DNA from: an uncultured Mycoplasmatota bacterium
GTDB lineage: Bacteria; Bacillota_I; Bacilli_A; RF39; UBA660
DNA: 59,402 nt
Direction: 5' to 3'
NCBI GenBank assembly: GCA_947646095.1
Contig: CANSFI010000008.1
Coordinates: 1 to 59,402 of the forward strand
In this document: positions 34,311 through 36,456 of the stretch, in pieces
Numbering within the stretch: the first letter of the stretch is position 1
Layout of the letters: each line of letters opens with the position of its first letter
The notes under the pieces: model-generated
What the model was told of the DNA's origin: nothing
The model's input: only the letters and a program-made list of their open reading frames with translations
Databases searched by the model: none
Position numbers and translations under genes: made by a program

Positions 34311-34769
34311 TTAATCTAGGAAGTAATCATCTATTGATACACTATCTCCAAAATCTGCGAATGGATCATTTTCAATATTAACTTCATTGACAGGCGCATC
34401 TGGGTAATTATAACTATTTGTATCTTGAGTTGAAACTCTAGCTTGACTTTGTCCTTTACTTTCTAAAAATTGAACATTATCAGCTACTATATCTGTTGTA
34501 TATCTTTTATTACCATCTTGACCATCATAACTTCCTGTTTGAATTCTACCTTCTATTGAAACAAGGCTACCTTTATCTAAATAGTTACAAACATTTTCAG
34601 CTTGTTTTCTCCACACTACAATATTAATAAAATCAGTTTCTCTTTGACCTTGAGAATTACTAAAATTACGGTTTACTGCTAAAGAAAATCTTGTGTATGG
34701 TAAATTAGAATTTGTATATCTCAATTCTGGTTTAGTAGTTAATCTTCCAATTAGACAAACTTTATTCAT
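34311..34769 (-). CDS. ssb: Single-stranded DNA-binding protein
   Basis: 152 aa. OB fold at 1-105 ([33 protein letters not shown]). Flexible Gln/Asn-rich linker, then an acidic end SIDDYFLD in place of the common DDDLPF tip that binds partner proteins. I set the start at 34769, downstream of GAAAGGAA; the frame open to 34817 has no start signal. It belongs to the rpsF-ssb-rpsR operon but is cut off from rpsF by an IS element. Confidence 0.95.
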
Positions 34770-34793
34770 AAATAAAAACATTCCTTTCTGCGT

Positions 34794-34812
34794 CCTTTCA
34801 GTCCTCGAAAGG
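34794..34812 (-). other. Hairpin in the ssb leader
   Basis: CCTTTC (34794-34799) / GAAAGG (34807-34812) with a 7-nt loop lies just upstream of the ssb ribosome binding site. Function unknown. Confidence 0.4.
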
Positions 34813-34849
34813 CACAAATCGAGATTAAAATAAATAAATTAAAATTTCT

Positions 34850-34877
34850 GATATAATAATTAACTATTAAAAGGCAA
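34850..34877 (-). promoter_or_regulatory. Possible outward promoter in the IS left end
   Basis: Minus strand: TTGCCT (34872-34877), 16-bp spacer, TATATC (34850-34855). It points out of the element into ssb-rpsR and may restore their expression after the operon was split. Confidence 0.4.
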
Positions 34878-35052
34878 TCACTGCGGAGCACGTTGGGGTG
34901 AGTGGGAAAAGATTTATTTCTTAAAACCGCATAAATATAAGTGTCGATTATCTTTTGAGTACAAATGAGTGTGTCTAAAGAGCACGTAACCTTATCTTTG
35001 TTAAAAACAAACCAGTTTTTTAGGTAAAAGATTTTCAGTTAAGGCCTTTTAA
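34867..35052 (+). ncRNA. Candidate IS110 bridge RNA (second element)
   Basis: The 230-bp left end has no frame. TTAAAAGGC (34867-34875) and GCCTTTTAA (35044-35052) enclose 186 bp, close to the 177-nt bridge RNA of IS621. GTGTGTCTAAA at 34969-34979 is identical to the right junction at 36415-36425, covering the end of the element and the CT core: what a left donor guide should look like. In the first half, ATTTCT matches the left target flank next to the core. Right-hand guides were not identified. Confidence 0.6.
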
Positions 35053-35078
35053 TAAATTTTATTGAAAGGAGTTTTTAT

Positions 35079-36332
35079 ATGCTAAAAATCGTTTTTAAAA
35101 AATGTGCTGGTATTGATGTTCATTCAACTCAAATTACCGTATGTATTGCTATTACAGATAATAATGACATTACTTCTTACGAAACAAGAATATTTCCAAC
35201 ATTCACAGAAAATCTTAGAGAATGCCGTGATTGGTTATTGTCTAAAGATATTACTGATGTTTGTATGGAATCTACAGGTAAATATTGGATTCCTGTTTAT
35301 AACATATTAGAAGAAAAAATTCATTGCATTATTACTCATCCTAAATATGTTAGAACTATTCTTGGTAAGAAAACTGACAAAAAAGACGCAAAATGGATTG
35401 CTGATATGTTCAAACACGGTCTTGTTGAGCCTTCTTTTATGCCACCAAAAGAAATTCGTGAACTTAGAGATTTAATGAGATATCGTAACAAATTAGTTAA
35501 TATTAGATCAGGTGAAAAGAATCGATTTCAAAATTCTTTAACTGTTTCTAATATTCAAATTGCTAATGTTTTAACAGATACCTTTGGTAAAACCGCTCAA
35601 TCTATTTTAACTTCTGTTTTAGAAAATCCAAATCTTACTTTGGATGATATTAAACCTTTACTTAGAAAAAATATCAAAGCTACACCAGAAGAAATCTACA
35701 AAGCGATTGATGGTAATTTTTCTGAATATCAAACTTCTAAAATGTCTGTTTGCCTTAGTCATTATGAAGCCATTAATTCTTGTATTGATAATTTAGAACA
35801 ATACATTTTAAAATTAGCCATCAATTATAGAACTGAAATTAATCTTTTATTAACCATACCAGGAATCAAAGAAATTTCAGCAATATTTATTATAGCAGAA
35901 ATTGGAACTGATATGAACGTATTTTTAGATTCTAAACATTTAGTTTCTTGGGCAGGTTTAGTGCCTCGCTGTAATGAATCCAATAACAAGAAAAAATCTG
36001 TTAAGATTACAAAAGTAGGAGTTTATATTAAACCACTTCTTGTTCAATGTGCTTTAAATTCTATAAGAGATAATTCTACTAGCTATTTTAAACTTCGTTA
36101 CGAATCTATTAAAAGACGTCGTGGGCATAAAGTTGCAATTATTGCTATTGCAAAATTAATGCTTACTTGCATTTATAATATTCTTAAAAATGGTGAAGTA
36201 TTTGATAGTGAACGTTGTAACAAATTAATTGAACGTAATTTTAAATCTCATAAGAAAACATTTACTAAACCAGAAGAAATGATTTCTTATTTAAGTTCTC
36301 TTGGATACAATATCACTTTATCTGATAATTAA
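35079..36332 (+). CDS. IS110-family DEDD transposase
   Basis: 417 aa. N-terminal RuvC-like domain begins CAGIDVHSTQITV, with acidic residues also in MESTGKYW and KTDKKDAKWIADM. C-terminal Transposase_20 domain has TIPGIKEISA, then SWAGLVPRCNES. It differs clearly from the transposase at 7385-8551, so the two elements are separate arrivals. AAAGGAG precedes ATG. No frameshift is visible, so it may be active. Confidence 0.92.
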   Translation: MLKIVFKKCAGIDVHSTQITVCIAITDNNDITSYETRIFPTFTENLRECRDWLLSKDITDVCMESTGKYWIPVYNILEEKIHCIITHPKYVRTILGKKTDKKDAKWIADMFKHGLVEPSFMPPKEIRELRDLMRYRNKLVNIRSGEKNRFQNSLTVSNIQIANVLTDTFGKTAQSILTSVLENPNLTLDDIKPLLRKNIKATPEEIYKAIDGNFSEYQTSKMSVCLSHYEAINSCIDNLEQYILKLAINYRTEINLLLTIPGIKEISAIFIIAEIGTDMNVFLDSKHLVSWAGLVPRCNESNNKKKSVKITKVGVYIKPLLVQCALNSIRDNSTSYFKLRYESIKRRRGHKVAIIAIAKLMLTCIYNILKNGEVFDSERCNKLIERNFKSHKKTFTKPEEMISYLSSLGYNITLSDN

Positions 36333-36339
36333 TTATTAT

Positions 36340-36373
36340 TTCAAAGAACACTTATTTTATAGTCTTCATTGAC
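36340..36373 (+). repeat. Block shared by the right ends of both IS110 elements (copy 2)
   Basis: TTCAAAGAAC (36340-36349) and GTCTTCATTGAC (36362-36373) recur from the first element (8556-8592). Confidence 0.7.
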
Positions 36374-36380
36374 TTATCTA

Positions 36381-36408
36381 AGTTCAAAAAAATTTTGATT
36401 TTTGAACT
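36381..36408 (+). other. Right-end hairpin of the second IS110 element
   Basis: Perfect 10-bp stem AGTTCAAAAA (36381-36390) / TTTTTGAACT (36399-36408), 8-nt loop, 12 bases before the element end. It may also stop transcription. Confidence 0.55.
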
Positions 36409-36456
36409 CATTTTGTGTGTCTAAATTTTAATTATTTATTTTCAACCTTACACCTC

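What the first reader, a model, noticed from the sequence alone, without database searches (positions are those of the whole stretch)
34867..36425. Donor-guide match between the putative bridge RNA and the right end
GTGTGTCTAAA in the non-coding left end (34969-34979) is identical to 36415-36425, which spans the last six bases of the element, the CT core and three flanking bases. In the bridge-RNA model the left donor guide copies this strand. ATTTCT in the first loop matches the left target. If right, this is a programmable recombinase with a readable guide in a gut-type Bacilli.
Basis: partly seen in the sequence, partly recalled or inferred. Interest (0 to 1): 0.65.

Follow-up and report, generated by a model that had tools for sequence, protein, structure and literature searches.

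The report
Bridge-RNA transposon targeting gene start sites

Summary
The 11-mer GTGTGTCTAAA does occur at 34969-34979 and 36415-36425, but it is not a donor guide. In close homologues the two copies do not covary, and its first four bases form a conserved stem.

Homologous elements at unrelated loci, and an empty ssb site in the same genus (CATAAATACACCTC), put the ends at 34774 and 36449. The IS110-group element sits between the Shine-Dalgarno sequence and the ATG of ssb, in the opposite orientation, much as reported for IS900.

The non-coding left end does encode a bridge-RNA-like RNA. Its left target guide is CATAAAT (34930-34936), identical to the left target at 34767-34773. Its left donor guide is AACCTT (34988-34993), identical to the right end (36444-36449). 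Over 53 elements, 47 guide triplets match their own flank exactly (shuffled mean 8.6, maximum 20). The donor guide matches the right end in 20 of 22 subgroup B/C elements, over six variants.

About ten related elements are 376-397 bp and carry only the RNA and the ends, without transposase. The right target guide is not proven; the best candidate is a Shine-Dalgarno-like GGGGUGA in the 5' hairpin.

The parts
34774..36449 (+). IS110-group element, 1676 bp; one T is shared between left flank (34773) and right end (36449). Inserted between the Shine-Dalgarno sequence and the ATG of ssb.
   Evidence: Empty ssb site in same-genus genome L135: CATAAAT|ACACCTCTTAATC equals window 34767-34773 joined to 36450 on. 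Homologues at unrelated loci are conserved out to these ends and no further.
35079..36332 (+). IS110-family DEDD recombinase, 417 aa. E64, D100 and D103 align with the IS621 RuvC residues and S301 with the catalytic serine; D13 by motif.
   Evidence: PF01548 and PF02371; NF033542 253.6 bits, cut-off 140; IS621 8wt6 and ISCro4 9t56.
34866..35053 (+). Bridge-RNA-like non-coding RNA in the left end: outer stem ATTAAAAGGC/GGCCTTTTAAT, 5' hairpin, target-guide segment, long donor-loop stem.
   Evidence: Consensus folds with compensatory changes in the donor-loop stem (A1) and in the outer stem (A2); 22 + 18 homologues aligned.
34930..34936 (+). Left target guide CATAAAT, identical to the left target 34767-34773; the match also covers the next base (A34937 / A34774).
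   Evidence: Unbiased scan of RNA columns against flank positions in A1: the three highest of 2394 are flank positions 4-6 with columns 68-70, in register. 47 of 53 triplets identical; shuffled maximum 20.
34767..34773 (+). Left target CATAAAT, the reverse complement of the ssb start codon and the 4 nt before it.
   Evidence: empty site; the same rule in all elements parsed.
34988..34993 (+). Left donor guide AACCTT, identical to the right end of the element (36444-36449).
   Evidence: Nearly invariant in subgroup A; co-changes with the right end between and within subgroups: ACACTT, AGATTA, AGACTA, AGGTTA, ACACTA, AAACTA; 20 of 22 identical.
36443..36449 (+). Right end CAACCTT (left donor).
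   Evidence: Conserved last bases in all subgroup A copies; flanks diverge immediately after.
36450..36456 (+). Right target: reverse complement of the host Shine-Dalgarno region (ACACCTC, minus strand GAGGTGT).
   Evidence: most copies carry a Shine-Dalgarno-like stretch here, at variable distance.
34895..34901 (+). Candidate right target guide GGGGTGA (GAGGTGA or GGAGGTGA in most homologues) in the loop of the 5' hairpin; its last A would pair with the shared T. Hypothesis.
   Evidence: Highest complementarity to the right flank of any RNA position in A1 (58% of 7 positions), but not better with own than with shuffled flanks (z 0.4).
34852..34857 (+). Probable -10 box TATAAT of the RNA promoter. 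Miniature copies carry TTGACT-N16-TATAAT here.
34779..34788 (-). GAAAGGAATG supplied by the left end upstream of ssb: a Shine-Dalgarno-like sequence and an in-frame ATG.
   Evidence: Sequence, ORF list; conserved in homologues.
34969..34979 (+). Not a guide: 5' arm of a conserved hairpin plus its loop.
36415..36425 (+).

Best explanation
This is an IS110-group insertion sequence whose left end encodes a bridge RNA. The recombinase and this RNA insert the circular element between a Shine-Dalgarno sequence and a start codon. The left target guide pairs with the strand opposite CATNNNT, where CAT is the start codon read on the other strand. The left donor guide pairs in the same way with the element's own right end. 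Top strands would be exchanged just after the shared T, as after the core T in IS621. In the window the target was the start of ssb in the rpsF-ssb-rpsR operon. Shown by comparison here: the ends, the two left guides, the RNA structure and the target rule. Inferred: transcription, binding, catalysis, circle formation, and recognition of the Shine-Dalgarno side by a second guide.
For: Empty sites: ssb in L135 matches the predicted joined site exactly; gyrB in L258 matches with the same length and a few substitutions; clpP in L241 matches apart from a 3-nt longer spacer. Left target guide against own flank: subgroup A 26 of 28 triplets, 82 of 84 bases, shuffled maximum 16; all 53 elements 47 triplets, 153 of 159 bases, shuffled maximum 20; these columns rank first in an unbiased scan. 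Nearly identical elements L171 and L174 differ in the guide triplet (AAT, TTT) and their targets differ the same way. Left donor guide against right end: 20 of 22, six variants. RNA stems with compensatory changes. Protein family.
Against: No RNA-seq or transposition data. The right target guide and the right donor guide could not be fixed by covariation. Elements are related by descent, so permutation values overstate independence. A few guide mismatches exist (L015, L039, L067, L168, L222, L225; donor side L014, L062). The core is not the CT of IS621: the shared base is T in subgroups A and B and A in subgroup C.
Confidence: 0.92

Rival explanations
1. One reading: element 34850-36420 with CT cores, left donor guide GTGTGTCT(AAA), target guide ATTTCT.
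For: The exact 11-mer match. A circle joined at those ends would happen to give TTGAAC-N17-TATAAT (read).
Against: The sequences outside those ends are conserved in elements at unrelated loci; the empty site puts the ends about 75 bp and 29 bp further out; the 11-mers do not covary and the LE copy lies partly in a conserved stem.
Confidence: 0.02
2. The start-codon location reflects survival rather than targeting: insertion occurs at any CATNNNT and only copies between Shine-Dalgarno and ATG, where the element supplies its own translation signals, are kept.
For: CATAAAT alone occurs 23 times in the 59-kb window, so the left guide by itself cannot specify start codons. No right-flank guide was proven. 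The left end carries Shine-Dalgarno-like sequences that may keep the gene expressed.
Against: Neutral intergenic CATNNNT sites should also hold copies, yet parsed copies abut an ATG in one orientation, most with a long open frame behind it (a few frames are only 14-26 codons). The search started from conserved element sequence, not from gene starts.
Confidence: 0.2
3. The RNA is only a cis regulator of the transposase gene and the guide match is a by-product of shared ancestry.
For: Upstream structured RNAs control some transposases (general knowledge). Related elements inflate statistics.
Against: The matched letters in the flank lie outside the element, in unrelated host genes, so common descent of the element cannot create the match. 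Transposase-less copies keep the RNA.
Confidence: 0.03

Closest known systems
IS900 (IS110 family, Mycobacterium avium subsp. paratuberculosis)
   Same: Target motif CATGNNNNNNTCTCCTT, i.e. [quoted passage not shown] Here the target is CATNNNT followed at variable distance by ACCTCC-like sequence.
   Different: Different host class; three variable bases follow CAT and match a guide; no long reverse-strand ORF (hed) here, only a tiny frame starting TTG; transposase-less RNA-carrying copies. IS900's own sequence was not compared here.
IS621 and its bridge RNA (PMC11208160, PMC11208158)
   Same: Recombinase family and catalytic residues; RNA in a long left end; left guides identical to left target and to right end; second core base T, with exchange just after it.
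   Different: Shared base T or A with a free neighbour instead of CT; guide order and right guides not established; target is a gene start, not a REP sequence; the RNA promoter of miniature copies appears to lie wholly inside the left end rather than being rebuilt at the circle junction.
IS1111-group seekRNA elements (PMC11187229)
   Same: A small RNA guides target choice. [quoted passage not shown]
   Different: RNA lies upstream of the transposase gene, not downstream; long left end and short right end.
MITEs (transposase-less miniature IS derivatives)
   Same: About 380-bp copies keep both ends and lack transposase.
   Different: They also keep the whole guide RNA, and different copies carry different guide triplets that match their own sites.

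Membership tests
IS110 family / IS110 group | DEDD recombinase with RuvC-like and Tnp (serine) domains | tested here: met
   NF033542 253.6 bits (cut-off 140); PF01548, PF02371; alignment with IS621 keeps E, D, D and the serine.
IS110 family / IS110 group | Long non-coding left end upstream of the gene, short right end | tested here: met
   305 bp left end (34774-35078) and 117 bp right end (36333-36449).
IS110 family / IS110 group | Left-end RNA with left target guide and left donor guide matching target and right end, with covariation | tested here: met
IS110 family / IS110 group | Right target guide and right donor guide | tested here: inconclusive
   No significant covariation with the right flank; right donor guide only suspected near 35013-35022.
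IS110 family / IS110 group | CT core dinucleotide at both ends | tested here: not met
   One shared base, T (A in subgroup C), with a free neighbour. PMC11208158 notes that only the T is near invariant and that AT, GT and TT cores also work in IS621, so CT is typical rather than strictly required.
IS110 family / IS110 group | Circular intermediate with promoter rebuilt at the junction | not testable with these tools
   Needs circle PCR and RNA-seq.
IS900-like start-site targeting | Insertion between Shine-Dalgarno and start codon, element reading against the gene | tested here: met
   Window plus other elements; a few have too little flank, or too short a frame, to be sure of the gene.
IS900-like start-site targeting | Sequence kinship to IS900 itself | not tested
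   IS900 sequence was not fetched.
IS1111 group | RNA downstream of the gene, long subterminal inverted repeats | tested here: not met
   RNA is upstream; right end is only 117 bp. Subterminal repeats were not searched for separately.

The most novel reading that the evidence does not exclude
A lineage of bridge RNAs in which one guide reads the start codon plus three programmable bases, and a Shine-Dalgarno-like loop in the 5' hairpin reads the ribosome-binding site of any gene at flexible distance. Transposase-less 'guide-RNA elements' are moved in trans and shift targets by changing three bases.
Probability: 0.35. Interest if true: 0.75.

Novelty: new variant of a known kind. Interest (0 to 1): 0.58.

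Why it matters
It links a 1997 observation (an IS110-family element that lands on translation-start signals) to the 2024 bridge-RNA mechanism and gives a direct reading of how the start codon is recognised: the guide simply contains CAT. Natural guide triplets that vary with their targets form a ready-made test set for target programming. Insertion in front of essential genes (ssb, gyrB, clpP, rplI) with replacement translation signals is a clean case of a mobile element coexisting with its host. RNA-only miniature copies would show that bridge RNAs can be shared in trans in nature.

Tried and rejected
Rfam search at E up to 1: only a chance hit on the neighbouring gene. Idea that the conserved flanks were a REP-like repeat target: rejected once copies were seen to stop at a fixed distance from start codons. 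Right target guide by covariation: nothing significant. Viral contigs gave no relatives. A first automatic parse of distant left flanks misread several targets and was corrected. Structure prediction was not run because the family assignment was already clear.

Full report
Observation. The 11-mer GTGTGTCTAAA is at 34969-34979 and 36415-36425 and nowhere else exactly. So the letters are as reported.

What the element is. The ORF 35079-36332 is an IS110-family recombinase. Searches of genomes from the same family, order and class and of GTDB contigs gave many relatives.

True ends. In the copies parsed, the left flank reads CATNNNT (CATNNNA in one subgroup) and then the element begins; CAT is the start codon of a gene on the other strand. 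The right flank begins after CAACCTT and usually carries a Shine-Dalgarno sequence on the other strand. The closest genome has an empty site: ssb in L135 reads GATTAAGAGGTGTATTTATGAATAAAG, in window orientation CATAAAT|ACACCTCTTAATC. That is exactly window 34767-34773 joined to 36450 onward. Two further sites agree: gyrB (occupied L253, empty L258) at the same length with a few substitutions, and clpP (occupied L239, empty L241) apart from three extra spacer bases. The element is therefore 34774-36449, sharing one T with the flank.

The RNA. The left end between the -10 box and the gene aligns across 22 elements of one subgroup (A) and 18 of two more distant subgroups (B, C). Consensus folds give an outer stem, a 5' hairpin and a long donor-loop stem, with compensatory changes in the donor-loop stem of A1 and the outer stem of A2.

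Target guide. The segment CCGCATAAATATAAG contains CATAAAT (34930-34936), identical to the left target. In 28 subgroup A elements the three bases after CAT match the element's own flank in 82 of 84 positions; shuffling partners gives at most 16 full triplet matches against 26 seen. Adding 25 elements of subgroups B and C (recombinases about 43-50% identical) gives 47 of 53 full matches and 153 of 159 bases; the shuffled mean is 8.6 and the maximum 20. A scan of RNA columns against flank positions, without prior choice, ranks the three in-register column pairs first among 2394. Elements L171 and L174 are nearly identical but carry AAT and TTT, and their targets are CATAATT and CATTTTT. The match cannot come from common descent of the element, because the target letters belong to different host genes.

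Donor guide. In subgroup A the RNA carries AACCTT (34988-34993), identical to the right end. It hardly varies there, but across subgroups both sides change together: ACACTT, AGATTA, AGACTA, AGGTTA, ACACTA and AAACTA, with 20 of 22 identical.

Exchange point. In IS621 the top strands are cut just after the core T, and only that T is near invariant (PMC11208158). Here the shared base is T in subgroups A and B and A in subgroup C, with its neighbours free. This fits exchange right after the shared base; the exact cut was not tested.

Shine-Dalgarno side. CATAAAT occurs 23 times in the window, so the left guide alone cannot explain why the copies abut start codons. Of all RNA positions in A1, GGGGTGA (34895-34901; GAGGTGA or GGAGGTGA elsewhere) has the highest complementarity to the right flank, with its last A opposite the shared T. 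Own flanks do not pair better than shuffled flanks, as expected if all contain a Shine-Dalgarno sequence, so this remains a hypothesis. Selection for tolerable insertions is the main rival for this part.

Miniature elements. A pattern search for the donor-guide region hit 26 of 385 genomes. About ten of the copies with both ends are 376-397 bp and have the RNA and both ends but no transposase (L099 in the window's own genome, L108, L170, L171, L172, L174, L175, L183, L186, L211). The own genome also holds a decayed subgroup C copy that obeys the same rules. Movement in trans is inferred, not shown.

Comparison. IS900 has target CATGNNNNNNTCTCCTT and has been described as targeting translation initiation signals (PMC8141618, citing Doran 1997). 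The bridge-RNA mechanism is known from IS621 and seekRNA elements (PMC11208160, PMC11208158, PMC11187229). I found no paper in the held library that reads the start-codon target from a bridge RNA or reports bridge-RNA-only elements, but the library is not complete.

Verdict. Its guide letters, core and ends are wrong. New variant of a known kind; interest 0.58.

Noticed in passing
L099 / L218 (own genome contig C11, about 16.2-16.6 kb): Transposase-less 378-bp copy with intact guide RNA (guide TATAATTA, flank CATAATTA) and its own TTGACT-N16-TATAAT promoter, in front of a short ORF.
   Followed up: partly
L219 (own genome contig C1, about 51.0-52.4 kb): Decayed copy from a distant subgroup (guide TATAATAAC, flank CATAATAAC; donor guide and right end AAACTA), in front of a 155-aa ORF.
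   Followed up: partly
34767-34788, minus strand: The left end gives ssb a new Shine-Dalgarno-like GAAAGGA and an in-frame upstream ATG (MFLFMNKV..); another subgroup supplies GGAGGAAAATATG. The elements seem built to keep the interrupted gene translated.
   Followed up: partly
36415-36456, minus strand: After the host Shine-Dalgarno sequence the right end reads AAGGTTGAAAATAAATAATTAA: a tiny TTG-started frame, conserved in kind among copies, possibly a counterpart of the IS900 hed frame.
   Followed up: no
34886-34892 and 34980-34986: GAGCACG occurs twice in the RNA, in the 5' hairpin loop and just before the donor guide; both are conserved in most subgroup A homologues. Meaning unknown.
   Followed up: no
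L239, L249, L253: Essential genes are hit repeatedly: clpP starts in two genomes of one genus, gyrB in one of them; also rplI, proS and rsmA elsewhere.
   Followed up: partly
L233-L236: More distant IS110 relatives (34% identity) have quite different ends (ATATAGACCATCACGCC .. TTTCATAGTAGAA) and do not appear to lie at start codons.
   Followed up: no
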